Source: Bacteroidaceae bacterium
GTDB taxonomy: Bacteria; Bacteroidota; Bacteroidia; Bacteroidales; Bacteroidaceae
Assembly (NCBI GenBank): GCA_017470425.1
Contig: JAFUYT010000012.1
Location: 1 to 61,394, forward strand
Direction: 5' to 3'
DNA: 61,394 bases
Shown: in pieces, positions 48,149-61,216 of the stretch
Numbering within the stretch: position 1 is the first letter of the stretch
Layout: the number at the start of each line of letters is the position of its first letter
Program-made: the position numbers and the translations under genes
The notes under the pieces: generated by a model
What the model was told of the DNA's origin: nothing
What the model saw: only the letters and a program-made list of their open reading frames with translations
Databases searched by the model: none

Positions 48149-48206
48149 CCTACATAATCATAATTCTTCCAAACTCTTAACCGAGAACTTGGAAGATGAG
48201 TGGTGT

Positions 48207-49211
48207 TTAGTATTCCTGCAGAAACTGGCGGATTTTCTTTGAGGGAATGCCGTAGTTGAAACCCTGTGTGCCATCGTAGCCGGCATAGTTGACGGCAACG
48301 AGGAAGCCATATTCATTCACCACAGGGCTACCGCTGGAACCGTGGAGCGAAGGTATGCTGTAGAGGATGCTCTCGCCGTCACCACGCTGTGTGACATTAC
48401 CGCTATAAATCTGTGACTGCACTTCGCCGGATGATGTCTTACCGATAGTGAAACCGCGATTGAAACCAATCATGTACAATTTTTGGTCAAGCGTGAGAGG
48501 TTTGTCGGCGGCTTCATCGCGCAGGGAAAAGACGTGAGCATCTTCGGGTGTCGTGCCGTCATCGAGCTGAATGATAGCCAGATCTACCCCGTCGTTGGCA
48601 ACTGCAACGAAGTCACAGGGAGCCATATCATCGTAGGACAGCACATGCTGATTGTTATAGACCACATAGAGCTTGCTATGGATATGGATGTCAGACTCAC
48701 TCATGTCCATGTCATCCACGCTCTCAAGCGCTCTCTGATAGGCTTGGTACCTTTGATAAATCTGCGCCTGCATGGCATCCTGCCCTGCATAGGCATGGAA
48801 CTGCCGTGTCAACTCATTGATACGCTCCTGATAGCTGCTCTTGATTACCTTCTTCACTCCCCGTAGGAAAAGTTTGACATTACTCTCGCTCACCTCCGGA
48901 CGTGCCACGTGGTGGTTGGTCATTATCTGCCCATCGGTGGTGATAAAGAAGCCTGTACCTGTCGCCACATTGCTGTGAGCATAGGCTTCGCCCGCATCAT
49001 CTGTCAGTCCGCTCACCCTTCCTTCGTCATCGACATCCGTAAAGTACAGCTCTTCACCCGTAGGGAGAGTGACTGAATAGTAGTAATCATTTACAATAAG
49101 CACCACTCCCGATGCAACTTTTTGATAGATTTCCTCAGAATTCAGAGGACGACTGCAAGCCGTGATGGCTGTTACCACCACGGCTGCAAAGAGATAGGAG
49201 AAGATTTTCAT
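48207..49211 (-). CDS. Trypsin-like serine protease, lipoprotein
   Basis: 334 residues. Lipobox ITAC (Cys 19). A chymotrypsin-fold triad is visible: His 101 in TNHHVA, Asp 210 in GVDLAIIQLDD and Ser 293 in HGSSGSPVVNEYG. A helical insert of about 85 residues separates His and Asp. It ends with the HtrA/trypsin_2-like YGIPSKKIRQFLQ, without a PDZ domain. Last gene of the operon; probably membrane-attached in the periplasm, processing partners or sensing damage. Confidence 0.85.
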   Translation of the reverse strand: MKIFSYLFAAVVVTAITACSRPLNSEEIYQKVASGVVLIVNDYYYSVTLPTGEELYFTDVDDEGRVSGLTDDAGEAYAHSNVATGTGFFITTDGQIMTNHHVARPEVSESNVKLFLRGVKKVIKSSYQERINELTRQFHAYAGQDAMQAQIYQRYQAYQRALESVDDMDMSESDIHIHSKLYVVYNNQHVLSYDDMAPCDFVAVANDGVDLAIIQLDDGTTPEDAHVFSLRDEAADKPLTLDQKLYMIGFNRGFTIGKTSSGEVQSQIYSGNVTQRGDGESILYSIPSLHGSSGSPVVNEYGFLVAVNYAGYDGTQGFNYGIPSKKIRQFLQEY

Positions 49212-49226
49212 CTTGTATGCATTGCT

Positions 49227-50042
49227 TTATGCTGCGAGTTCCTTCTCCAGCTCATCGTCGGAGATATCGTCGAGGCTCTTGCTGGCATCTTCCGGTGCTA
49301 CATTGTACTGGGCAAACTGCTGTGCGAAAGCCTCAGCCTCGGCTTTGAGCTCATCCTCGCTCTTGGCTTGCTTCTGCTCCACGATGGCGGTGTATGCCTC
49401 GTCCTCGGGCAGGATTTCCTTGATATAGCAGCATTTGTTCAACTTCTTGAGGGCTGCTTCGTCGAAATAGTTCAATGATGCAGGGTCTTCGATGGCGCCG
49501 TTCTTGAGTGCCTTCCATTTCTTGGAGTTGGCCACCCACTGCCCGCGTACAGCCTTGATTTCCTTGATGCCCTGGGTGAAGATGACGGCTCCTCCCTTGA
49601 CATATTTGCCAAATGAGAACGCTTTCAAACCCAATTCAGGAAGTTCCAGGACAGCATCGGCCGTGAGGAGCTGTGCATTCGTGATATCGAGTACGATGTT
49701 CAATCCATCAGCCACCGCGTTGGCACACTGCCAGTTCACCTGACCACGCGTCACCATTTCATTTTGGGCATTCAGCATATACGCCACAGCATAATACTTG
49801 CCGTTGATGGAAATGGTATCGCCCGCCATGCGGTAGTTATCCATCGTCTCTTTGTATTGTTGGATCTCCTTGTAGGTCTTATCTATCGTCACGAGATAGT
49901 TGTCAATCGTGGCATTGCCTGAGCGTGTGCCATCCCAGTCCCATTTGATTTCTTTCTTTTTCTTCTCCTTAGGTGCGGGTGTGGCGTTCAAGGTAGTACC
50001 CAACGTAAGCATTGCGACAGCAAGCCAAAGAATCTTTTTCAT
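49227..50042 (-). CDS. Exported protein of unknown function
   Basis: 271 residues with a signal peptide (MKKILWLAVAMLTLGTTLNA), then a Lys-rich stretch (PKEKKKKEIKWDWDGT). A mixed alpha/beta body follows (DNYLVTIDKTYKEIQQYKET, LLTADAVLELPELGLKAFSF), with an acidic helical tail (KSLDDISDDELEKELAA). No family recognised. Gaps of 31 and 15 nt to its neighbours place it in the tubulin-like operon. Confidence 0.6.
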   Translation of the reverse strand: MKKILWLAVAMLTLGTTLNATPAPKEKKKKEIKWDWDGTRSGNATIDNYLVTIDKTYKEIQQYKETMDNYRMAGDTISINGKYYAVAYMLNAQNEMVTRGQVNWQCANAVADGLNIVLDITNAQLLTADAVLELPELGLKAFSFGKYVKGGAVIFTQGIKEIKAVRGQWVANSKKWKALKNGAIEDPASLNYFDEAALKKLNKCCYIKEILPEDEAYTAIVEQKQAKSEDELKAEAEAFAQQFAQYNVAPEDASKSLDDISDDELEKELAA

Positions 50043-50073
50043 AGTTGAATGAATTTTAGGTGAATAGTATATT

Positions 50074-51153
50074 TTAGTGAATGACTATATGGATATCTGT
50101 GTCTTTCGGACTGACGTAGTGTGCCTGTTTCTTTTCCCCATCGACAAAAATATATTTCATATCGTCGGGAACAACAATCGTGAATGTGCCATCGGATCGG
50201 ACACGTCCAATGAGGCGACAGTTCTTGCGGTCAATTTTCGCAGTCGGAGAGGCATAGACGCTGAGCGAGTTGAAGGGAATTGCCTCGTATTCGTTCTTGA
50301 AGCTGACGTGCCCCGTGACCTGCTGACGCTGCACCGTTACTTCCTGCCGCACAATGTCAGAAGCCTTGGGATGCTGCACCAGACGTCCGTGCACCTCGTC
50401 TTGGATAGGCTTGAAGCCCCCCACCTCAGGATATTCCTCCACGAGTTTCGAGATGAACTTGTACTCTCCGCTGAGATACTTATAGACATCATCACTCTCG
50501 AATCCTTTCTCGGCCTCAGCCTTGCGGGCAAGTGTGTCACTGCGCTCCCGGAAATATGCAGTCTTACGAATGGCTGCCAGCCGGTTGCGCTCCTGATAGA
50601 TGGCATCCCGCTCTGCCTGCGGGCAGTCGTTGTGCCCGATGGCCTGGTCGTAGGCTGTGACAGCTGCGAGATAATAGCTGCTCTCGGTATGTTCGCGATA
50701 GTTGCGACTGTATTCGCGGGCGATATCTATGAGCTCTTCGAAAGTGGTGGCGATGGTGGGGACATCGAGCTCGATGCGATAGACATTCTTTCCCTCGATG
50801 GGAATGGGGTTGCCCGCCTCGTCCTTCAGATAGTCGGCAAAGATGATTTCCCCGGAAGGGAAGTTCTCGTGGCGGAACTTGAGTTTCTTCGCGCCAGGAT
50901 AGACCCACACCTTATACTCACCAGGTATATATTCCTGGTCACCTACCATGAAGCTGTTGCTGAACTGGATTTCCTTCACCATCGGCACGGCAATGCGCAC
51001 GAGAGCACACTCCTTACCGTCGCTGCTCAAGCGGGGATGTGTACGGGCGGCCAAATCGTTCTGCAGCCAAGTAATGCTCTTGACCTTGATCTCCTGCGCC
51101 TGAGTGAAACCTGCTGCCAGCAGGCAAAGACTTATTAGCAGAATCTTTCTCAT
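50074..51153 (-). CDS. Exported protein with N-terminal PEGA-like domain
   Basis: About 359 residues from ATG 51153 (signal peptide MRKILLISLCLLAAGFTQAQ). Residues about 40-125 have the look of a carboxypeptidase-regulatory/PEGA-type beta sandwich (ECALVRIAVPMVKEI, YIPGEYKVWVYPGAKKLKF). A helical middle follows (YYLAAVTAYDQAIGHND), and a second beta-rich C-terminal region (VTGHVSFKNEYEAIPFN, RLIGRVRSDGTFTIVVPDD). Function unknown; in the tubulin-like operon. Confidence 0.6.
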   Translation of the reverse strand: MRKILLISLCLLAAGFTQAQEIKVKSITWLQNDLAARTHPRLSSDGKECALVRIAVPMVKEIQFSNSFMVGDQEYIPGEYKVWVYPGAKKLKFRHENFPSGEIIFADYLKDEAGNPIPIEGKNVYRIELDVPTIATTFEELIDIAREYSRNYREHTESSYYLAAVTAYDQAIGHNDCPQAERDAIYQERNRLAAIRKTAYFRERSDTLARKAEAEKGFESDDVYKYLSGEYKFISKLVEEYPEVGGFKPIQDEVHGRLVQHPKASDIVRQEVTVQRQQVTGHVSFKNEYEAIPFNSLSVYASPTAKIDRKNCRLIGRVRSDGTFTIVVPDDMKYIFVDGEKKQAHYVSPKDTDIHIVIH

Positions 51154-51197
51154 AGGATAAGTTCTCCGTTGGGGGGTAATATTTATTTCTAATAGGT

Positions 51198-52202
51198 TCA
51201 ATCATCATCAATGTCGAAGTCCGCGAGGCTGAGGACCTGATCTTTGGGGATACGGGTCTTCTGGCCGCTACCCGTCTGGTCGAAGGCGTCAGGCTGCCAG
51301 GTGCGCACGTGGATCTGCGGATGCTGCTCGTTCTGGAAGTCCCATAGCAGGAAGACGTAACCATCGTCGTGGTATCCCTGAGCACCGTTTTTCTTGAAGG
51401 AGCTATACCCCTGATGCAGCGTGACACCATAAAAGTCGGACCTCGTGGGATGACGCATCACTTCGATTTCATCAAAAGAGACGTTAATGCGCCCATTGTT
51501 GTCGAAGATGGCAAAAAGGCTATTCAGATACTCACGCTTTCCTTGCTTCTTGTAGATAATCTTATCCGGCAGCTTGATGCCATCCTTGGTGCGTTGAGTG
51601 ACAACCTTTCCCGTAATGATGAGGGCATCGTCACTGAAAATATCTTCAAGAAAGTTCTTGTTCTTCTCGTTGTAGGCCGTACGGAAGCGTTCTACATAGT
51701 CGAGGATGAGCTGTCGGCGGCGCAGGTCGGTCATCTCCAGATTACTCTTGATGACCTGCATATAGAGTTGCTGGTCGATGGTGAGATGGAGGCTCTCGAT
51801 ATGTCCTTTCCTGTCGAAGTCGAGCACAGCCTCGTGGTACTCACGCTCATTGAAGTTGCCGCCGATGGGGCGCATCATCAAGGGGATGTTGCGCACCTGC
51901 CAGCCTGTGGAGGTGGTGAGGGCGCGCAGGACGAGTTCCGTGTCCTCACACATGAAAGGCGTATTCTCCCACAACATACTCAGTGAGGTGCTCACGCCAT
52001 CTGCCAGATGCAAGTGCGAACAATCCAGCTCGCGCCCTGCAGCCTGTGCGGCATTAGCCTCGTCCAAAAGCACAGTAATAGTGGCCTCCATAGCAGCCTG
52101 AATATTGGGATCATCCACGTCGGTAACCATCACTTTGATATGATCAGCCTTCACAGAGAGGCTGGAAAGGAGGGTAATGAACAAAAATATCTTTTTCATC
52201 AT
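51198..52202 (-). CDS. Exported protein with NTF2-like domain
   Basis: 334 residues with a signal peptide (FLFITLLSSLSVKA). The middle, about residues 165-290, has a SnoaL/NTF2-like pattern: DYVERFRTAYNEKNKNFL, EDIFSDDALIITGK, KREYLNSLFAIFDNNGRINV, DFYGVTLHQGYSS and DGYVFLLWDF. Such folds bind small ligands or serve as docking modules. It ends in an acidic tail (LADFDIDDD). Part of the tubulin-like operon. Confidence 0.6.
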   Translation of the reverse strand: MMKKIFLFITLLSSLSVKADHIKVMVTDVDDPNIQAAMEATITVLLDEANAAQAAGRELDCSHLHLADGVSTSLSMLWENTPFMCEDTELVLRALTTSTGWQVRNIPLMMRPIGGNFNEREYHEAVLDFDRKGHIESLHLTIDQQLYMQVIKSNLEMTDLRRRQLILDYVERFRTAYNEKNKNFLEDIFSDDALIITGKVVTQRTKDGIKLPDKIIYKKQGKREYLNSLFAIFDNNGRINVSFDEIEVMRHPTRSDFYGVTLHQGYSSFKKNGAQGYHDDGYVFLLWDFQNEQHPQIHVRTWQPDAFDQTGSGQKTRIPKDQVLSLADFDIDDD

Positions 52203-52221
52203 GTTTAAAGCATTATCTCTA

Positions 52222-52989
52222 TTATTCTTTATTTCCGGCTTTCAGCTGTAGCCAAATGGCACCGCAACCCTTATAGTTCTCGATGTTGTCGTCCTGCATC
52301 GTATTGAGATTAAGCAGCGTGCCGTCTGCCTCACGCCGCAGATTGGCAGCGATGTTCCCTTGACGGTCATAGACCAGCAGGTAGCATCTTCCCGCCTGTG
52401 GAAGGGTCTTGTACTTACCATAGCTTTCGAGCAGGTCTGCATCTTGAAGCGCCTTCACCTTTCCTTCTACTTCACTGAACAATCTAATCGCTGCAAGCTC
52501 CTTCTCCTGGGATGTAAGGGTGACGGCAGCCTTGAGGACCTCCACGGAGGAGACCTCAGTGCCCTCGTTGGCATTGTCGGTAACCTCGTCGGCAACAGCC
52601 TGTGAGTTGCGGTTCTCAATAACCATTGTGCCACTGCCGACCCCTACGGGAATGATGTCGTTCTTCTTGACATAGACGAAAGCGCGGTGGTACTCTCCAC
52701 GCTTGGTCTTGATGGGCGTGAAATGCTGCTTAGCCTGAATGATAAAGGCATCGGCGTTGCTGCCTTTCTTCTGGGATGCCATCCAGTCCGAGATGGTCAT
52801 CTCAAGGATAGCCTGTGCGCCGCTGAGGGCTTCAGCCTCGTCGCGCATGGTGGTCTCCGCATAGAGATAATCCTTGCTGAGCTTGATGCGGTTGATTTCC
52901 TTGGCGGCATCAGCGGGTGTCTGTGCCATAAGCGATGCAGGCATAAGACTTAGCAGAAGAGCGATGAGGGGAAGACATAGGGTTCTCAT
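52222..52989 (-). CDS. Exported protein of unknown function
   Basis: 255 residues with a signal peptide ending ASLMAQ. The first part (YLYAETTMRDEAEALSGAQAIL...RAFVYVKKNDIIPVG) resembles LPP20-type domains by eye only. The C-terminal part (GRCYLLVYDRQGNIAANLRR) is beta-rich. Its start overlaps the upstream gene by 4 nt, so translation is coupled. Confidence 0.55.
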   Translation of the reverse strand: MRTLCLPLIALLLSLMPASLMAQTPADAAKEINRIKLSKDYLYAETTMRDEAEALSGAQAILEMTISDWMASQKKGSNADAFIIQAKQHFTPIKTKRGEYHRAFVYVKKNDIIPVGVGSGTMVIENRNSQAVADEVTDNANEGTEVSSVEVLKAAVTLTSQEKELAAIRLFSEVEGKVKALQDADLLESYGKYKTLPQAGRCYLLVYDRQGNIAANLRREADGTLLNLNTMQDDNIENYKGCGAIWLQLKAGNKE

Positions 52990-53927
52990 ATCTTGAATCG
53001 TTTTTGCTTCTTTTCGATATATTGTTTATACAGATTTTTCACGTTGTGCGTGGGAATGTAGCCGTTCAGCCGTGCCTGCAGCACAACATCGGGGGCCGTC
53101 ACGAAACCGCTGGGAATGATGACGGAGAGCGTATGGTTGTACTTGAGCTCACGACTCTCAGCCACAAGGAGCATCTTCAGCCCATCCTCGCGCTCTTCCT
53201 CAAGACCGCAATACACATGCAGACCGTGTGACCGGCAGAAGTGAACCCACTGGGAAAGAGACAATTTAATATGGAGACTGCTAAAGTCAAAAAGCGAGAG
53301 CTCCACATGCAGAGAGAAATCACGATGGATAAGGCCATGCAACAGGTTGGCAGCCGAATAGTCAAGATGTTCTTGAGAGAAGAGGGGCTCGAAGCCAGCT
53401 TGCTGGTTCTTCACATAATAGAGAGCATCGTTCAGCGACGGGAGGTAGTAGCTCTCCTCCGGAGTTGCCCATACACCCTTCTCGACCTCTTCCAGACCTT
53501 GGGGCGTGGGCTGCTGCGCGAACCCTTGAGGTTGGCTGCGCAATTCTACGGGAAGACGTTCGACCAGTTCCCGCTGTGAGAGACCCGTAATGAGTGTATT
53601 CTGTGCAGGAAAGGCAAGACACAGGAAGGGCAGCGTTCCATGAGACCAAGTCATTTCGTAGTATCCGCTCCCGGCTGTGATGTTCAAGTCATAGTCGGCG
53701 GGCAGATGAACGAGATCCTTGAGCGTGCCCTGCAGAAAGAGGACTTTGTCATCGGCCAGCTGCCGCTCAACCAACAAGGGATTCTTCAAGGCTGTCAGCT
53801 GTCTTGCATAGCGATGTGCAAAGTCCTGCAGCAAGGCGGCCGTCTCCGCAGTCACCCCTGTCTGCCCTCGGAGCGTGAGGGCGGACAGGGTGACAATGCA
53901 GAGAAAAAACAACCGGCGTAGTGTCAT
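52986..53927 (-). CDS. Exported protein of unknown function
   Basis: 313 residues with a signal peptide (LFFLCIVTLSALTLRGQ). The body has helical and beta parts (KVLFLQGTLKDLVHLPADYD, GYYEMTWSHGTLPFLCLAFP) and a basic tail (NLYKQYIEKKQKRFKI). No family recognised. Overlaps the next gene by 4 nt. Confidence 0.55.
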   Translation of the reverse strand: MTLRRLFFLCIVTLSALTLRGQTGVTAETAALLQDFAHRYARQLTALKNPLLVERQLADDKVLFLQGTLKDLVHLPADYDLNITAGSGYYEMTWSHGTLPFLCLAFPAQNTLITGLSQRELVERLPVELRSQPQGFAQQPTPQGLEEVEKGVWATPEESYYLPSLNDALYYVKNQQAGFEPLFSQEHLDYSAANLLHGLIHRDFSLHVELSLFDFSSLHIKLSLSQWVHFCRSHGLHVYCGLEEEREDGLKMLLVAESRELKYNHTLSVIIPSGFVTAPDVVLQARLNGYIPTHNVKNLYKQYIEKKQKRFKI

Positions 53928-53953
53928 GTCAATGGTATGAGTTCAAGTTACAA

Positions 53954-54916
53954 TTATTCGGGGCGTCCCAGCAGCAGGCTTCCCTTTTGGGATCCGTCGG
54001 CACCATACCACTTGGCCGTTTCCACGTGACCCTTGTAGAACAGGCCGCTCACGTAGTCGCCAGCCTCTGCCACACGTCCTTTGCTATCACGGCTGTCTAT
54101 GGTGTGAGAGGTTGTGAAGGTGAGGGTGCCGGTTCCATGAGGCTGTCCATTCTCCATCTCACCCTTATAGGTGGCATAGCCTAAATTCTTGGAACCGCTG
54201 GATTTGCGGCCTGTAGTCCCTGGCTTCTGCTTTTTCTTGGCTTTCAGTATGGAATCTTGTCGGAGGGAGTCTTCGATGGCTTTCTGCCGAGCTGCTGCCT
54301 CGGCTGCCGCCTGTGCCTCAGCTGCCGCTTGTGCTTCAGCTTCCTGACGCTGCCGCTCCAACTCCTCGTCGGAGGGTCCTGCCTCTTCTACCTTTACCTT
54401 GCATCGGCTCTTGAGCATGTTATTCTCCTCTGTAGAGAGGATAATAGTCGTCTCACCTGCCTTAAGGGCTGTGACCTCACCTCCCTTTGTGACAGTTACA
54501 ACGGCCTCATCGTTGGACGTCCACGTATAGGTGACCTTAGCGTCTGAGGGCTCAACCGTTGGATTCAGCAACACGCGTTGTCCCGGTTGCAGCACCAGTT
54601 CCTTCTTATCGAGCTCTATCTTGACATTCTTGGAGTTGCTGCCTTTGAAGAGCTGCGCGATGCCGAAGCCGCCACCACCGAGGAGTGCGAGGGCAGCCAC
54701 CACGATGATGATGAGCCTGCCATTCTTGCTCATACCGCCCTTGCCCTTCTTATGGGGAGGGGCACAGGGTGAAAGTGGTTTCTTACAGTTTTCCTCGGGA
54801 CAGATGAGGTCGCCACGTTCTATTTCTATCTTCTGGCGGTAATTGGGGCAATTGGGATTGGTGCAGATGCCCCATCTGCTTTGGCGACTAGTAGTCCGCC
54901 TTACTTCATTTGCCAT
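53954..54916 (-). CDS. Zinc ribbon-TM-Big2-MORN protein
   Basis: 320 residues. Order: an N-terminal zinc ribbon with two CX4C pairs (CTNPNC, CPEENC); a TM helix (LIIIVVAALALLGGGGFGI, about 65-83); a Big_2-like Ig domain (LDKKELVLQPGQRVLLNPTV, SNDEAVVTVTKGGEVTALKA); an Ala/Glu/Gln-rich coiled coil (about 180-235); and a MORN-like C-terminus (YKGEMENGQPHGTGTLTF). The ribbon would be cytoplasmic and the rest periplasmic, making this a plausible link between the tubulin-like protein and the periplasm. Confidence 0.75.
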   Translation of the reverse strand: MANEVRRTTSRQSRWGICTNPNCPNYRQKIEIERGDLICPEENCKKPLSPCAPPHKKGKGGMSKNGRLIIIVVAALALLGGGGFGIAQLFKGSNSKNVKIELDKKELVLQPGQRVLLNPTVEPSDAKVTYTWTSNDEAVVTVTKGGEVTALKAGETTIILSTEENNMLKSRCKVKVEEAGPSDEELERQRQEAEAQAAAEAQAAAEAAARQKAIEDSLRQDSILKAKKKQKPGTTGRKSSGSKNLGYATYKGEMENGQPHGTGTLTFTTSHTIDSRDSKGRVAEAGDYVSGLFYKGHVETAKWYGADGSQKGSLLLGRPE

Positions 54917-54953
54917 TATCTTCTGACTTTTAGAATTAGATATTTCCTGTTAT

Positions 54954-57900
54954 TCACGCAAGAGGCGGGGGGGTAGGACCCGCAGGCGGCATGGGAGGCA
55001 TCCCCGGCATGGCAGGGGGAACAGCGGGTGCAAAGAGGGGTGCCAGTTTGGAGACCTGTCCAGCAGGCATCCATGCGGCCATACCTTGTTCCCACACCAT
55101 CGTCTCTGGCGTGAGTTGGTTATTCTGTTTCAATTGTTTACAGGTGCCCCAATCATAGGGTCCATAGTTCTGCCCCCCAATATTCAGGAAGAGCTGCACC
55201 TGCGGCTCAACAGGTGGAGGGGTGACACCACCAAAAGGCGGAGGGGTGACAGGAGGGGTTATGGGCGGCGGAGTAGGACCGGCAACAGGTGGTACAGCAG
55301 AACCTGCGGCTGGCTGCATAGGTTGTGCTGGCTGTTCAGCTACGCGCTTTGCGTCCATTTCCTTCAATTCTTCGTTGGAAAGCGCAAAAATGGAAGGCAG
55401 GTTGCTGCCATCACCTTCACAATGCAACAGAATCCGATGACTCAGGTCATTATTGGCATTTCCTGTATTGAGATACCTTTCGTACCTTCTGCAGTAGTCC
55501 CTCATCCACGTCATTGCACGCATGGGGTAGCAATAGCTGATAGTGATGATGGAAAGTTCATTCTTGCGCGTGCTCTCGGTGAACACCGTGGGAGCCTTGT
55601 TGCCTTGTGTAGTCTGTGCTCTGAAAGCGGCTTCCAGCTGTTGGGCAAAGCGCACAACATTCGGGTTATCATCTGGAGCTGGCATAGAGATAAACACTTC
55701 CTTCAGCTTGATGTTCTGGTTGTCATCGGGAATGGGGTTGTTGCGCACGTGGAAGCTCATCTGATTGGCGTCCAAATAGAGGTACGCACCACTCTGCTCC
55801 AGGATATCGTGGGCGAACTCGTGGATCTTCTTCTCCGTGTCGAGCTTCTGCTGCAACTGTGTCAGGATATTCAATCCCAGCACCTTGGTATCTGTCTTGG
55901 GCTTGTCGGCGTGCTTAGTCTTGACGATTTCAGAGAGTGTCACGTCGAAAGCTTTCTTGATATCTTCTACACTCAAACGTAGTGTCAAATCGCCAAAGCT
56001 GATAAAGGACCCAGTGATGATGGCTTCACGTAGTTTCTGGGATATCTGAGTCATAACAGTCTTATCATGCGTCAGTTCCTGCTCGAAATCCACCATGCTC
56101 TCGTCCTCGCTGACTTCCACGACAGCACCCTTCATGTCATCCAGGCCCTTATTGACCTTACGCTGGCTGGTGATGAGGCGGTTGGTCTCGTCAATGGCAT
56201 CACTCACAAGTTTGCTGAAGCCGCCAATCTCACTGCTCAAGGCCGTAAACTCACGTACAAGCGCCTGTTGCAGTTTAATGGCAAAGGCCAGTGCGACGGA
56301 CATCGTGCGTGCCTCGAAGTAGTAAGGCAACTCCACTTGAAAATCAGAATAAAAATCATCTTTGTTCTTCTTCAAACCCACCATCACGCCCAGACCACGG
56401 GCACTCGACCAGTCCCTACGGATATTGTCGAGATTCACCTTACTCTCTTCCAGCTTTTCGGCTGTCTTTTCAACCTCCACATCGAGAACTTCCTTCTTCA
56501 ACTCATGGACATACTCAAGCAGGATGTCTGCCACGCGAGTCAGCTCTATAATGGAAATCTCGCCCGAACGCCACTTGTTGAAGAGTTCGATCTCGGACAC
56601 TTTTCGAATCTCTGCAGCAATCTCCTTAAGGGATCGCTCCTTTCCTTTGTAGTATTCCTCAACACCGACACCACGGAACGAGTTAGTGAACATGAAGTCC
56701 ATCTGCGACTGCAGCTCCTGCAAGGGATTATCTGCCTCAGCGCTTGTCTCGGCAAAGTCACTGATGAGTGACTGCCAGTCATCGAAGAATGCGGGGTATG
56801 CAGCATCGCTCGGCAGCACCTTGCTCTCGAGCGTGATGTGCTTGAGGTCGAGCATCCAGTCCGTCAGATGTTTCTCTGTCAGATAGAGGCCGCGATAGTC
56901 TTTGTTTGCCTCTTCCTCCACGTAGCCGATGCTTTCGCGCCAATTATTGAACTTGAACTGATCCAGGGCGGCCTTACCCGTTGTATAGGTGATATGTTTG
57001 AGTACGCGCAACTCAGGGTATATGACACGCTTGATGCCGAAACTATTGATCTTCTTTGTGCGGACGATGGGCAGTTCCATGTCGTCTCTCAACTCTGTGG
57101 GGGGCACTGTCTCGTCGAACTCCAACGCGAAATCATCCATATTCTCGAAGTTGTACGCACGTATGATGTCCTTGCAACCGTCGATGTCGGGATTGATGAG
57201 GAAGACGCGCGAATAGACATAGTCACTCACTATCTTCGGCAGTTCGTTGAAGGAATCCACGATGCGCCCATTCTCATTGGCATTACTATAAATCGTAATA
57301 CCATTGGCTACGCCCTTTATACGGGGATCGAAAAGGTCGGTCATAAGTGCGCCCTCACCCGTCACATCATGCAGTTGCAGACGTCCGCACTGCAGGGCAT
57401 TGAGCTCGTTAAGGGCGGCATAGCCGTTTTGATAATACCGTCCTTTATCCATATCGGGTTTAGGGAGGTCCCTCTCTGGCATCATTGCATAGACATTGAT
57501 GATTGCATCGTCCCATAACTTACGAGCCTGTGCAATGGCATCGATGATAGAGCCGGAACCGGTACCACCATTCAAACCGGCAAAGATGTGGACCACTTTC
57601 GTATTATTACCAGATTGTGCATGGCAACGGCCATAGGCATTTTGCAACGCACGTACATAACTCGACGCATTGGCAGCGAAGAGCAGGCGACCGGCGCGAC
57701 GCTTCTGACCTGCCGCCTCACCAAGAGAGCCGATAGCTGTGCGCACAGCCTGCACATTGTTCACAATAGCTTTTAACTGCGGATAATTCCCAATGTTGTC
57801 CAGAAGGGCTGGCACATCGATTCCCTTGATGAACAGGAACTCATCTTCCGTAAAGGAAGCATCCTTGCCCATCACATTGAAATCTTCGCGCCCAATACCC

Positions 57901-58055
57901 ATCATCTCACGAGTAGAATCAACATAGAGGAGCGCAACAGGTTTCCTGCTGCGTTCCTCAAAATCAGGAAACTCCTCGAACATACGCATTTTAAAGGCAC
58001 GCAGGATCTTGCCACCTGTGCCACCTAATCCCACTAAAATGTGATTTGTTGCCAT
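54954..58055 (-). CDS. Tubulin-like (FtsZ superfamily) protein with C-terminal GYF_2 domain
   Basis: 1033 residues. The N-terminal nucleotide-binding region has a glycine loop (LVGLGGTGGKILRAFK, residues 7-22), YVDSTREM, and the tubulin signature AGLNGGTGSGSIIDAIAQ with GGTGSGS at 163-169, as in Tubulin_2/FtsZl-type proteins. A long helical middle (about 430-800) is coiled-coil rich. A Pro-rich linker leads to a GYF_2 domain (LNIGGQNYGPYDW, TPETMVWEQGMAAWMPAGQV), then a Pro-rich tail. GYF domains bind Pro-rich peptides, so self- or partner-binding is likely. It probably binds GTP and polymerises at the membrane. Confidence 0.82.
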   Translation of the reverse strand: MATNHILVGLGGTGGKILRAFKMRMFEEFPDFEERSRKPVALLYVDSTREMMGIGREDFNVMGKDASFTEDEFLFIKGIDVPALLDNIGNYPQLKAIVNNVQAVRTAIGSLGEAAGQKRRAGRLLFAANASSYVRALQNAYGRCHAQSGNNTKVVHIFAGLNGGTGSGSIIDAIAQARKLWDDAIINVYAMMPERDLPKPDMDKGRYYQNGYAALNELNALQCGRLQLHDVTGEGALMTDLFDPRIKGVANGITIYSNANENGRIVDSFNELPKIVSDYVYSRVFLINPDIDGCKDIIRAYNFENMDDFALEFDETVPPTELRDDMELPIVRTKKINSFGIKRVIYPELRVLKHITYTTGKAALDQFKFNNWRESIGYVEEEANKDYRGLYLTEKHLTDWMLDLKHITLESKVLPSDAAYPAFFDDWQSLISDFAETSAEADNPLQELQSQMDFMFTNSFRGVGVEEYYKGKERSLKEIAAEIRKVSEIELFNKWRSGEISIIELTRVADILLEYVHELKKEVLDVEVEKTAEKLEESKVNLDNIRRDWSSARGLGVMVGLKKNKDDFYSDFQVELPYYFEARTMSVALAFAIKLQQALVREFTALSSEIGGFSKLVSDAIDETNRLITSQRKVNKGLDDMKGAVVEVSEDESMVDFEQELTHDKTVMTQISQKLREAIITGSFISFGDLTLRLSVEDIKKAFDVTLSEIVKTKHADKPKTDTKVLGLNILTQLQQKLDTEKKIHEFAHDILEQSGAYLYLDANQMSFHVRNNPIPDDNQNIKLKEVFISMPAPDDNPNVVRFAQQLEAAFRAQTTQGNKAPTVFTESTRKNELSIITISYCYPMRAMTWMRDYCRRYERYLNTGNANNDLSHRILLHCEGDGSNLPSIFALSNEELKEMDAKRVAEQPAQPMQPAAGSAVPPVAGPTPPPITPPVTPPPFGGVTPPPVEPQVQLFLNIGGQNYGPYDWGTCKQLKQNNQLTPETMVWEQGMAAWMPAGQVSKLAPLFAPAVPPAMPGMPPMPPAGPTPPPLA

Positions 58056-58093
58056 AATTGATGTGTATTTAGTTTATAATATCTGATCTGTCA

Positions 58094-58717
58094 TTATCGG
58101 CGACGAGAATTGCGCCGGAGACGTTCATCGCTCCTGCCCTGAGAGAGCGTATGATTTCCTCTACGAGATACTGTACCTCTTCGAATTTGCACTCCCCTTC
58201 CCTTCGTGTGTTCCATCAGTATAGAAATACCCAATATGGCTACTGCAATGAAACACATACTCCACGCTACACGGCGGACAATGTACCAATTGAGATAGAC
58301 ATGAACTTTATGGGTGAGGGCTTCGCCCAAAGTCATATCTTCATCCTGAGTGATGAGTTCGGCATCTATCAACGTCGCTGCTACGGGGAAAGCAGCAACG
58401 GCCTGAGAGACCGCATCGTTGATGTCTTCGCGAGAGAAAGAGCCGTCCGTGGACTTCTCCGGGACAAGAACGTCAATCCAAGAGGCCACTTCCGAGCAGG
58501 TGTGTTTTAGGCTGATAGAACCAAAGAGCAAGAATAGCTGAATCGCCAAGAGGGGCAATAGCGGAACAGCAATGAGGTAGCTGAGAGGTGTAAATTTCTT
58601 GTTTCCTCCCTGTAGCACATAGATGATGAGATATATGACAGCGATCACAACAATAGCCGCTACAATACCCAACCAGATATTGCTTGCCTGCTTAATAAAG
58701 ATGCCCAAAATATTCAT
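58094..58717 (-). CDS. Multi-TM membrane protein, first gene of the tubulin-like operon
   Basis: About 207 residues from ATG 58717. The longer frame begins only with TTG. Three TM helices: about 14-36 (IWLGIVAAIVVIAVIYLIIY), 46-66 (IAVPLLPLLAIQLFLLFGSI) and 145-165 (WSMCFIAVAILGISILM). A loop between the second and third has acidic sequence, and a strongly basic tail (SDERLRRNSRRR) is likely cytoplasmic. No family recognised. The start lies 44 nt after the leader-RNA terminator. Confidence 0.65.
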   Translation of the reverse strand: MNILGIFIKQASNIWLGIVAAIVVIAVIYLIIYVLQGGNKKFTPLSYLIAVPLLPLLAIQLFLLFGSISLKHTCSEVASWIDVLVPEKSTDGSFSREDINDAVSQAVAAFPVAATLIDAELITQDEDMTLGEALTHKVHVYLNWYIVRRVAWSMCFIAVAILGISILMEHTKGRGVQIRRGTVSRRGNHTLSQGRSDERLRRNSRRR

Positions 58718-58761
58718 AAGCAATAATGCTTTAGGGTTCGTCAATCAACTGACACATACAT

Positions 58762-58803
58762 AAAAAAAGCGTGGGAGACTGTACCCTGTTGCATCGTCCC
58801 ACG
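58762..58803 (-). terminator. Intrinsic terminator before the tubulin-like operon
   Basis: On the minus strand CGTGGGA (58803-58797), a 20-nt loop, TCCCACG (58776-58770), C, then seven T (58768-58762). The 3' strand can alternatively pair with GCGTGGG at 58860-58854. Confidence 0.8.
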
Positions 58804-59112
58804 GTCTAAGGCTCTAGCATTGCCCATCAAGTCTGAACGGTGCAACGCAGAAGCCCACGCAAGGAGATATGTTATATGCCTCTCGCGCGTACCTTAATAA
58901 TATTAGGGTACACTGAGGGCTATACGATACATATTCCCACATAGGGCATCTACCGTTGCTTTGTTTTCGACTTGACTTTGGAATTTGCTAGATTCAGACC
59001 GTCAAAGAACAAAGCGCTGAGTAAACGCCTTTTACATGATGTGTGTCCCACCCGCCCAGCTTCTGCTCATCAGAGTCTCTCAACCCATAAAACATCCACC
59101 TACGTAATGAAG
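58762..59112 (-). ncRNA. Structured RNA of about 350 nt ahead of the tubulin-like operon
   Basis: Bounded by a consensus promoter (59119-59149) and a terminator (58762-58803). Complementary pairs seen: GCGTGGG (58854-58860) with CCCACGC (58769-58775) and, nested inside, GTTGCA with TGCAAC; GTACC/GGTAC around 58911-58889; and TGTACCCT (58905-58912) with AGGGTACA (58780-58787), which would cross the terminal stem as a pseudoknot. It could be a free RNA (6S-like or a Bacteroidales-specific class) or an attenuation leader. I could not match it to RNase P, tmRNA or SRP RNA. Confidence 0.55.
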
Positions 59113-59118
59113 ACGCCG

Positions 59119-59149
59119 CAAAAGTAAGGATTCGGAGCGAAACGACAAA
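59119..59149 (-). promoter_or_regulatory. Consensus promoter of the leader RNA / tubulin-like operon
   Basis: On the minus strand TTTG (59146-59149), 19 nt, TACTTTTG (59119-59126): a complete match to the Bacteroidetes consensus. No other promoter is evident before the first start codon at 58717. Confidence 0.8.
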
Positions 59150-59201
59150 GAAAAAAGGAAAAATATTTGGCAAGAGACACAAAAATACTTTCCGATAAAA
59201 A

Positions 59202-59244
59202 GGCATTTCCCTGACTAGGCCATTCTCCGTGCTCATTTTGCAGG
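59202..59244. repeat. Dispersed 42-bp repeat, copy 2
   Basis: Same sequence as 46949-46990 with a few changes (GCATTTCCCTGACTAGGC... then ATTCTCCGTGCTCATTTTGC). The two copies lie outside the two ends of the tubulin-like operon region, 12 kb apart, in direct orientation. Confidence 0.85.
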
Positions 59245-59270
59245 ACGCTCACCGCGCTCGGCCTTCAAGA

Positions 59271-59332
59271 TGACTTAATACAGAAAAGGTGCACATGATT
59301 TAACAAATGTGCACCTTTTCTGTATTAAGTCA
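59271..59332. terminator. 26-bp perfect inverted repeat after the BspA-like gene
   Basis: Arms 59271-59296 and 59307-59332 (TGACTTAATACAGAAAAGG...) are perfectly complementary around a 10-nt loop. It lies 3 nt after the BspA-like stop codon. Long for a terminator, with no T tract on the minus strand beyond the stem, but T-rich inside the arm. A hairpin transcript-end element or a miniature insertion is possible. Confidence 0.6.
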
Positions 59333-59335
59333 GTT

Positions 59336-61216
59336 CTATTTCACCAGCACTTTCCGGGTCGTGCCGTCGGCAGCGCGAATGATGTTCACGCCTTTGACGG
59401 GACGTGTTACTTGGATGCCGTTGGGCGTGAACCAGACAGCGGCGCCGGTTTCCATCTGATTGATATCAGAGATGCCCGTGGGAACGGCTTCCAACTGCCA
59501 CATGCCACCATCGTCTGTGCGACCACGCGTGTCAACCCAGAAACCGAGATAACCAGCATTGCTACCATACTGCGTGATGTAATCCTGCTCTGAGCCGAAC
59601 CGCAGCAGGTTGAACCCGGCGAGGTTGCGGATGAGCTCCCAGCGCTCTGTACTCCCGGCACGCATCAGGGCATAATTGCCGACCTTGGTAAGGCACTGGT
59701 CAGCACCTGCCGCCTTGTTGAGGATGATGAAACCGGTGTGCGGCGTTCCCATGAACGCCCACTGGAAACGATCTTCCTCCTGCTTGACAGCCGTGGGGAA
59801 ATAGGGTTCCGTGTCATCCATGCAGATGTAGTAGTTATAGCGTATCTTGGCGTAGTACCACGCGGCAGCGTCATAGCTCTCGCTGACATCAAACGGCAAA
59901 TCCCACGTCACCTTCACCTGCACCGTATTCTCTCCGCTCTTCATGGTCGCGGGTGTCACCGTGTAGAAGCAGTAGTCCTTCTGTAGTTCCGTCGGGACGC
60001 TGTTGATGACAGTACCAGCGACCGTCCCCATCGGCTCCGAGCGGGTGACGACGCCGCCGGGCTCTTCGAACACGTAGCAGACGGTGTTGTTGGGATGGAA
60101 GTAAACGTCCAGGAGCTCCAACGCCTCCGTGGCATCATATTCCGTATTGACAATCGTCATCTGATACGTGTTGCCGCCATTGCCGCCTTCGAAGTCTTTC
60201 CATGTGTTCATGTAAACCGACGGCTTGTTGTCCATGTTCATCCAGTTCCCGAAGCTGTCCTCCAGATACCAAGGATATGCCGGGAACCCTGTTTCGCCCC
60301 ACGTCAGCCCTGTCACCGCCTTGCCGAGATCTGTTCTGCTTTCCAATGCGAGGTTGCCTACAGTTCTGGCCTGGGCAGCTACGGTATGGACCACAAAGTT
60401 CTTGTGCGTGGCATCATAGAGGTAGTTCGTGTTGCCATAGTCGATGATAGCAAACTGCGAGGCATTCTCTTTGCTGGTGCCACACAGGGAAGAGCCATTG
60501 TAGCCCACATATCCACGTGCGCAGTTCAGGGTAAAGGTCTGGACGGTCACCTTGGGGTTGTCCGGTTGGTCAATAGCTACAATCGCACCAAACTTGCTCC
60601 ATACCTCTGATGCCCTGTAGCTTTCGAGGGATGCCTCTGGCACATGGAGGGTGATATTTTCAGTGTTCACGCCTTCTCTGAAGCCATCACATACAAATGG
60701 TGGATTGGGGGCTAAACAATAGAGGTCTTTCAACGCACTACAACCGGCAAAGGTTCCTGAACCTATAAATTCAGCACTACTTCCGATACTTACTTTTTCA
60801 AGTTCCGAGCACCAATAAAAGGCACCAATAGATGTACTTTCATTGGTTGGCCAAATTAAATCTCCGATATACTTCACGCTATTGGGTATCTTTACCTCTT
60901 TCAAGCCTGTGTAATAAAAAGCCCCACTACCGATGCATATCGTACCTTCGGGAATAGTTACTGCCTTCAGTTGTGTCAAACCGGAAAATGCTGCGCTTGT
61001 TATACTTTTTACACCATCTTTCAGTACAATCTCCAAGTTGTCTGGCACGCTGTTCCGCGATTGGTATTTGTATGTATAGGCTATATCGCCCAAATATACA
61101 ACATCGTTAATCGGTTGGCTGTTGTACCACGCTGTATTATGGAAAGCCGCCCAGCCTACCATATTCAAGTTCTCTGGGATATTGATAGTGGCCAGTTTGG
61201 TACAAGAGGTGAATTT
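59336..61216 (-). pseudogene. BspA-like leucine-rich-repeat secreted protein, 5'-truncated
   Basis: About 625 codons remain. The N-terminal part has LRR_5/BspA repeats (TKLATINIPENLNMVGWAAF, GLTQLKAVTIPEGTICIGSGAF, LEKVSIGSSAEFIGSGTFAGC). A long beta-rich region follows, then a C-terminal sorting-type tail (GVNIIRAADGTTRKVLVK) like that of the protein at 2122. Going upstream, the LRR pattern ends near 61216 and a stop lies at 61232-61234, with no signal peptide. The true 5' part is lost or displaced. Confidence 0.75.

What the first reader, a model, noticed from the sequence alone, without database searches (positions are those of the whole stretch)
48207..58717. Nine-gene operon built around a tubulin-like GYF protein, a zinc-ribbon/MORN bridge and a lipoprotein protease
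All nine genes are on one strand with gaps of 15-44 nt or 4-nt overlaps. Seen: a GGTGSGS tubulin signature and GYF_2 domain in a 1033-aa protein; a protein with cytoplasmic zinc ribbon, one TM, Big2 and MORN-like domains; a three-TM protein; five secreted proteins, one with an NTF2-like pattern; and a serine-protease lipoprotein with a full triad. Known: tubulin-like (FtsZl/Tubulin_2) families outside FtsZ have been proposed to remodel membranes, and GYF domains bind proline-rich peptides. Inference: a polymerising GTPase is coupled across the inner membrane to a periplasmic assembly that ends in a protease. I know of no described system with this set.
Basis: partly seen in the sequence, partly recalled or inferred. 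Interest (0 to 1): 0.82.

Follow-up and report, generated by a model that had tools for sequence, protein, structure and literature searches.

The report
Tubulin-based trans-envelope operon in Bacteroidales
A set of eight neighbouring genes, kept together in many gut and rumen bacteria, appears to join a tubulin-like protein inside the cell to a group of exported proteins outside the inner membrane, and parts of the same exported group are elsewhere joined to a protein kinase, which makes an unexplained cell-surface device testable.

Summary
In detail: all nine genes are at the stated coordinates, including a Tubulin_2 protein (E 9.8e-42) ending in GYF_2 and a zinc-ribbon/TM/Big_2/MORN bridge. 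It is no chance neighbourhood: in 55 flank-complete Bacteroidales loci, g1 is kept in 52, g3 55, g4 54, g5 52, g6 54, g7 49, g8 33, while most flanks differ. Corrections: the protease (g9) is in only 3 of 78 sources, and GYF belongs to one clade. Additions: (1) a confident AlphaFold model matches nearly whole CetZ, FtsZ and tubulin chains, so the C-terminal half of the fold seems present behind a ~410-residue helical insert; a 2010 description of the family could not find it. (2) Exported genes g4 and g6 recur without tubulin; in two loci they follow a Ser/Thr kinase carrying the bridge's MORN domain. (3) g1 was found in none of 11 tubulin-less loci. Best reading: a reusable periplasmic sensor/scaffold that controls tubulin assembly at the inner membrane. 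Gene set, order and fold are well supported; polymerisation, contacts, direction and purpose are inferred. It is a new variant of the predicted FtsZl1/Tubulin_2 membrane systems, without their vWA, GTPase or GAP1 partners.

The parts
58094..58717 (-). g1: small inner-membrane protein, 3 predicted TM helices, Arg-rich C-terminal tail (13 R/K, 3 D/E in last 45 residues)
   Evidence: before g2 in 52 of 55 loci; no hit in 11 tubulin-less loci
54954..58055 (-). g2: 1033-aa tubulin-superfamily protein; GTPase half ~1-370, helical insert ~370-783 with long hairpin 502-559/565-630, C-terminal half ~784-892 (borders inferred), Pro-rich tail, GYF_2 956-1004
53954..54916 (-). g3: bridge: cytoplasmic zinc ribbon (C18 C23 C39 C44), 1 TM, Big_2, Ala-rich linker, MORN-like domain
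   Evidence: (4 Cys invariant in 27 of 27)
52986..53927 (-). [not shown]
52222..52989 (-). g5: exported protein; a possible LPP20-type relative by way of one fused protein (L149, weak)
51198..52202 (-). g6: exported protein with an NTF2-like C-terminal domain (weak but recurrent Pfam matches)
50074..51153 (-). g7: exported protein; variable slot, in some relatives PEGA, CarboxypepD_reg, FGE-sulfatase, Sel1, TPR or WG domains
49227..50042 (-). g8: exported protein; glycine-zipper match in some family members (8 of 22 at E<=0.1), not in the window's own
48207..49211 (-). g9: trypsin-like serine-protease lipoprotein; lineage-specific, not core
48165..48196 (-). terminator-like hairpin just after g9 (consensus match only)

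Best explanation
The operon most likely encodes a trans-envelope receptor/scaffold with two plug-together halves. The exported half (MORN domain of g3 plus g4-g8) assembles in the periplasm, perhaps reaching the outer membrane or peptidoglycan. The inner half is g1, the tubulin-like g2 and the zinc-ribbon end of g3. The state of the exported complex is passed through the single TM helix of g3 and controls assembly of g2 into GTP-dependent filaments on the inner face of the membrane, with g1 as a second membrane contact. In some relatives the MORN domain is fused to a Ser/Thr kinase instead, giving a phosphorylation output. Supported by computation: gene set, order, predicted topology, predicted fold, module exchange. 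Inferred: GTP-driven polymerisation, physical contacts, outside-to-inside direction, the ligand, and the purpose.
Against: No biochemistry, no complex prediction (the tool folds single chains) and no phenotype. Of 11 tubulin-less loci read, six have g4 and g6 with TPR-type genes and no bridge of the g3 kind (one of them, L147, has a weak g3/MORN-like exported gene nearby), and g5 is missing from eight; so the exported proteins may have a function of their own and the coupling may be loose. Only two kinase fusions beside g4-g6 were read. Some tubulin copies have lost motifs. Receptor-kinase direction is an analogy.
Confidence: 0.45

Rival explanations
1. Inside-out scaffold: tubulin filaments position or move the exported assembly (surface layer, adhesin or envelope-shaping parts), comparable in principle to the Myxococcus Glt machinery.
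For: The variable g7 slot carries PEGA, Sel1, TPR, FGE-sulfatase and WG domains in some members, as expected of environment-facing parts; the g2-family profile matches a solved fragment of Adventurous gliding motility protein X over the GYF stretch (7z3c, E 6.9e-5).
Against: g4 and g6 also occur with a kinase or without a g3-type bridge, so they do not need a filament. NCBIfam GltJ scores are 22 and 24.9 bits against a cut-off of 450. No motor genes recognised among the nine.
Confidence: 0.25
2. A conflict (immunity or cell-death) system of the kind predicted by Kaur et al. 2020, where tubulins with coiled coils, ZnR, PEGA, NTF2, GYF, trypsin and kinase/PP2C parts form membrane-proximal complexes.
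For: Patchy distribution (31 of 301 genomes; 5 of 61 in the genus; 3 of 198 in the order by full-length match) and often unlike flanks, e.g. L045 and L075 at 97.9% g2 identity with no shared flank cluster; overlapping domain vocabulary (PMC7159879 section 29); caspase and FHA genes beside the kinase-type locus L144.
Against: DO-GTPase2 and GAP1-N2 not found in the own genome (genome 72% complete); no vWA or HSP70 match in the nine genes; PADLOC gives only protease-type matches for g9 and weak ones for g8 (E 0.008 and worse); most parts are exported.
Confidence: 0.22
3. Loose neighbourhood of unrelated envelope genes with no common function.
For: The g4 profile hits 19 of 301 genomes that have no g2 match; some closely related loci share flanks, so part of the conservation is plain descent.
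Against: Order kept down to 24% g2 identity (L034) and in 8 of 8 loci of a second, divergent subfamily (L128-L135); short gaps and mostly unlike flanks.
Confidence: 0.03

Closest known systems
FtsZl1 family (Makarova and Koonin 2010, PMC2875224; Pfam Tubulin_2)
   Same: g2 belongs to the same Pfam family; extended coiled coil after the GTPase part; extra to the cell's own FtsZ; membrane-linked neighbours; OmpA proteins in some neighbourhoods, compare L118 here. Bacteroides caccae is among the species of their figure 1 alignment; in which family's row I did not see.
   Different: Their usual vWA partner and the P-loop GTPase are absent here; the g1, g3-g8 set is not described in the parts I read; they could not identify T6-H7 or the C-terminal domain, which the model here appears to contain.
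GAP1-N2 GTPase-centric systems, tubulin theme (Kaur et al. 2020, PMC7159879)
   Same: Tubulin fused to coiled coil or helical domain, ZnR, PEGA, NTF2, GYF, trypsin somewhere in these systems; alternative kinase theme; membrane proximity.
   Different: Tubulin theme reported as restricted to firmicutes and actinobacteria; core GAP1, DO-GTPase and vWA not found here.
GltJ/AgmX of the Myxococcus gliding machinery
   Same: Sequence match over the GYF stretch (7z3c; that 7z3c is its GYF domain is recalled); potential integral membrane protein of an envelope machine (PMC3169522, passages). ZnR plus GYF in one protein is recalled, not from a call.
   Different: No tubulin; fails the curated GltJ model.
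Bacteroidales kinase-TM-MORN proteins (L144, L145)
   Same: MORN domain of L144 50% identical to the window's; g4-g5-g6 downstream.
   Different: Cytoplasmic output is a kinase instead of zinc ribbon plus tubulin; no g1.

Membership tests
Tubulin/FtsZ superfamily | Tubulin fold | tested here: met
   [not shown]
Tubulin/FtsZ superfamily | GTP-binding signature loop | tested here: met
   GGTGSG 163-168 in 49 of 49 aligned full-length members
Tubulin/FtsZ superfamily | GTP-dependent polymerisation | not testable with these tools
   no assay
FtsZl1 / Tubulin_2 | PF13809 over the curated cut-off | tested here: met
   143.9 bits against 27
FtsZl1 / Tubulin_2 | Extended coiled coil after the GTPase part | tested here: met
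   long helices 502-559 and 565-630 in the model; that they coil together was not measured
FtsZl1 systems | vWA-domain partner gene (in the majority of predicted operons) | tested here: not met
   no vWA in the nine genes or the LRR gene beside them; the other loci were not scanned gene by gene
GAP1-N2 GTPase-centric systems | DO-GTPase and GAP1 components | tested here: not met
   none in the nine genes; PF19993 and PF20013 absent from the own genome, which is only 72% complete; DO-GTPase1 was not searched in the genome
GltJ gliding protein | NCBIfam NF033761 over cut-off | tested here: not met
   22 (g2) and 24.9 (g3) bits against 450
GYF domain | PF14237 over cut-off | tested here: met
   49.6 bits against 25.8; only GYF_2 match in the own, incomplete genome
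MORN repeat | PF02493 over cut-off | tested here: inconclusive
   21.3 bits against 22.5 in the window; over it in L144, 24.8

The most novel reading that the evidence does not exclude
Bacteroidales own a 'plug-in' envelope receptor whose periplasmic complex can drive either a tubulin filament or a Ser/Thr kinase, that is, a bacterial receptor that signals by nucleating a tubulin cytoskeleton. Its tubulin keeps the whole two-domain tubulin fold split by a ~410-residue arm, which may hold for the whole FtsZl1 family.
Probability: 0.3. Interest if true: 0.9.

Novelty: new variant of a known kind. Interest (0 to 1): 0.7.

Why it matters
A tubulin-superfamily protein tied by conserved gene order to exported envelope proteins would be a cytoskeleton that acts across the inner membrane, in common gut and rumen bacteria. 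The exchange of the tubulin module for a kinase on the same exported proteins makes the role of the tubulin directly testable by swapping. The model also suggests that the 2010 uncertainty about how FtsZl1 proteins could form filaments came from a long insert that hid the C-terminal half.

Tried and rejected
Protease as end of the pathway: rejected, g9 in 3 of 78 sources (window, L078 in the same slot, L113 divergent and upstream). Some of the 78 are cut short after g2, so a few could have been missed; 55 have 7.5 kb after g2.

GYF of g2 binding a PPP motif beside the TM of g3: raw table 52/9/3/15 (both / GYF only / PPP only / neither; 79 loci), recounted with other patterns 50/9/2/16 of 77. 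By eye my patterns misread L060, L082 and L099. The tree needs only 2 changes of the GYF label, one of them the truncated L091, so this is in effect one event and no independent support; the window itself has CAPPHKK, not PPP. Kept as an idea only.

Residue-level superposition of g2 on tubulin was not available; the place of the insert (about 370-783) and the T7 assignment (E304/N305) are inferred from the order of secondary-structure elements, the aligned ranges and invariance. A 561-aa paralogue in L081 (the same contig as L155, judged by its length and coordinates) lacks the insert, but its T1 and T4 loops are altered, so it may be a decaying copy.

Limits of the counts: the scan works from two peptide patterns and is a lower bound. 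L112 equals L032 and was left out of the counts; 21 of 76 loci failed the flank or length filter; L123-L126 repeat L100, L080, L064, L046 (100% identical g2) and were left out of the tree. Of the 19 genomes with g4 but no g2 match I read loci from 7 (G647, G649, G711, G717, G724, G774, G834); the other four tubulin-less loci (L138, L139, L146, L152) are second places in genomes that do have g2. Four loci with g6 alone or its domain were also read (L148-L151).
Full report
WHAT IS THERE. Nine minus-strand ORFs lie at 48207-58717, with gaps of 38, 37, 26, -4, 19, 44, 31 and 15 nt when g1 and g7 start at ATG. In order of transcription: g1, three predicted TM helices and an Arg-rich tail; g2, 1033 aa, Tubulin_2 E 9.8e-42 and GYF_2 E 3.4e-13; g3, zinc ribbon, one TM, Big_2 E 1.9e-10, MORN E 2.2e-4 just under its cut-off; g4-g8, five proteins with a signal-peptide-like start; g9, a trypsin-like lipoprotein, Trypsin_2 E 8.1e-17. 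Across the families a hydropathy test finds such a start in 64 of 67 g4, 64 of 64 g5, 64 of 67 g6, 57 of 58 g7 and 38 of 39 g8, against 1 of 82 for g2 as control; g1 has three TM in 65 of 69 and g3 one TM in 69 of 70. A terminator-like hairpin follows g9 (consensus match only).

IS IT MORE THAN A CHANCE NEIGHBOURHOOD. A scan of one genome per species returned 75 loci with a relative of g2 (two peptide patterns, so a lower bound). Profiles built from the window proteins were run on these plus L032, L034 and the window, 78 sources. Of 76 loci (L112 left out as a copy of L032, window left out), 55 have at least 1 kb before and 7.5 kb after a g2 of 900 aa or more; in these, contiguous with g2: g1 52, g3 55, g4 54, g5 52, g6 54, g7 49, g8 33; same strand in 53; commonest order g1-g2-g3-g4-g5-g6-g7-g8 in 26. 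The largest other gene cluster spans 8 loci. Flanks mostly differ: 113 of 2186 pairs share any flank cluster; L045 and L075, 97.9% identical in g2, share none; but some close pairs do share flanks (L094/L098 8 clusters, L055/L081 5, L052/L096 5), as plain descent would give. A second, divergent subfamily has the same order g1 to g6 in 8 of 8 loci fetched (L128-L135). So the block is a unit, patchily present: 31 of 301 genomes in the window's family and 13 of 30 genera, 5 of 61 in its genus, 3 of 198 in the order by full-length match, own genome included (47 further genomes match, nearly all only over the GYF part), and 7 of 395 in the phylum, 3 full-length.

WHAT VARIES. GYF is present in 59 of 77 tree rows and needs two label changes, one being a truncated row; the other full-length members end in a different sequence, not folded here. 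Big_2 is in some bridges only. The g7 slot varies in length and domains: at E<=0.1 PEGA in 6 of 23, CarboxypepD_reg in 6, FGE-sulfatase in 4, others with TPR, Sel1 or WG, and tandem copies in some loci. g9 is in 3 of 78 sources. Two loci (L128, L130) carry a second, 774-aa tubulin without the T4 glycines next to an intact one.

THE MODULE EXCHANGE. In the 301 genomes the g4 profile finds 49: 30 of the 31 with g2, and 19 without. The g6 profile finds 94, including 30 of the 31, many others only by its C-terminal domain. The MORN domain of g3 finds 35: 30 of the 31, plus G647, G649, G711, G834 and a weak G799. The one miss in each is G791. I read 11 tubulin-less g4-g6 loci, from 7 of the 19 genomes plus four second places in g2-bearing genomes. 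Two, L144 and L145, have Pkinase (E 3e-29, 1.5e-30) - TM - MORN-type domain in one protein followed by g4, g5, g6 (g3 profile over the C-terminal part), with HLDxKPxN and DFG kept. One, L152, in a genome that also has the tubulin operon, has a zinc-ribbon protein of 814 aa (Zn_Ribbon_1 over cut-off), one of 733 aa (zinc-ribbon matches under cut-off) and a 525-aa protein with TPR and the g3 C-terminal part (E 5.8e-37), followed by g4-g8. Two, L142 and L143, have a MORN protein with a lipobox-like start (read by eye) and g4, g6, g7, g8. Six have g4 and g6 with long TPR-type neighbours (one, L138, tested: Sel1 and TPR) and no g3-type bridge, though L147 has a weak g3/MORN-like exported gene nearby (E 9.3e-5). 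g5 was found in three of the 11 (L144, L145, L152); g1 in none. The MORN domain of L144 is 50% identical to the window's. In L118, from another class of the phylum, a g2 relative is followed by a g3-like protein with PBP_like_2 and OmpA domains, with no g4-g8 on the short contig.

HOW IT MOST LIKELY WORKS. The natural cut is between an inner half (g1, g2, zinc-ribbon end of g3) and an exported half (MORN domain, g4-g8). Since the exported half is also wired to a membrane-anchored kinase, I take it to be a sensor or assembly platform whose state is passed inward, and the tubulin to be the output: filaments form or are held at the membrane when the exported complex is in the right state. The OmpA domain in L118 suggests a peptidoglycan contact. 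All contacts, polymerisation and direction are inference. The two serious rivals are an inside-out scaffold and a conflict system.

COMPARISON WITH WHAT IS KNOWN. g2 is a member of Tubulin_2/FtsZl1 by profile and fold. The system is not the vWA/GTPase system of 2010 and not a GAP1-N2 system of Kaur et al. 2020 (PMC7159879; passages and section 29): the nine genes hold no vWA, GTPase of that kind or GAP1, and DO-GTPase2 and GAP1-N2 are absent from the 72%-complete own genome. It shares much vocabulary with the latter, including tubulin and kinase as alternative themes. A 2023 paper on FtsZ/tubulin origins (PMC9871819, passages) calls the Tubulin_2 group scattered and sparse. Paper searches that found no description of this gene set; listings only except for the papers named; the library holds open-licence papers, no preprints, and supplements could not be read.

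VERDICT. A real, conserved operon without a description that I could find; observation confirmed, interpretation partly supported; new variant of a known kind; interest 0.7.

Noticed in passing
L155:15240-16925 (by length and coordinates the same contig as L081:19337-21022): A 561-aa second tubulin after g8 lacks the whole ~390-residue insert, joining the two halves of the fold; its T1 and T4 loops are altered.
   Followed up: partly
L128:8980-11304 and L130:8087-10411: A 774-aa degenerate tubulin without the T4 glycine loop stands in tandem before an intact 1032-aa one, a possible pseudo-GTPase partner.
   Followed up: partly
L149:4522-6534, L148:4597-6519: Proteins of ~650 aa carry the g6 NTF2-like domain at the C-terminus; in L149 the N-terminus matches LPP20 (PF02169 4.5e-5, under its cut-off) and weakly g5 (0.0024), a hint that g5 and g6 act together.
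   Followed up: partly
L153:1-10300: Cluster with kinase-MORN and kinase-FGE-sulfatase proteins, FHA-like and PP2C-like genes (last two by eye) and no g4 match: a signalling relative.
   Followed up: no
L089:6760-8109 and cluster mates in L057, L065, L075, L086, L102, L114: A protein kinase gene (Pkinase 7.8e-26, one member tested) lies in the fetched flank in 7 of 78 sources, in some on the other strand.
   Followed up: no
L044, L061, L073, L076, L099, L107, L108, L117 downstream of g7: Two further gene families (clusters c8 in 8 loci, c9 in 7) stand where g8 is otherwise found; one member of each tested, no Pfam match over cut-off.
   Followed up: no
L085 (Xylanibacter muris) and L111: g2 reading frame is interrupted (755+265 aa; 102+972 aa); assembly error or decay not resolved.
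   Followed up: no
L096: Record labelled Clostridium sp. sits beside a Paraprevotella row in the tree; probably a mislabelled MAG.
   Followed up: no
window 58760-59335: Long intergenic stretch before g1 with a palindrome near 59270-59335 (by eye); no Rfam match at gathering scores.
   Followed up: partly
window 59336-61168: BspA-type LRR protein (LRR_5 5e-20) upstream of g1 on the same strand; no cluster of its kind recurs beside the block in the other loci.
   Followed up: no
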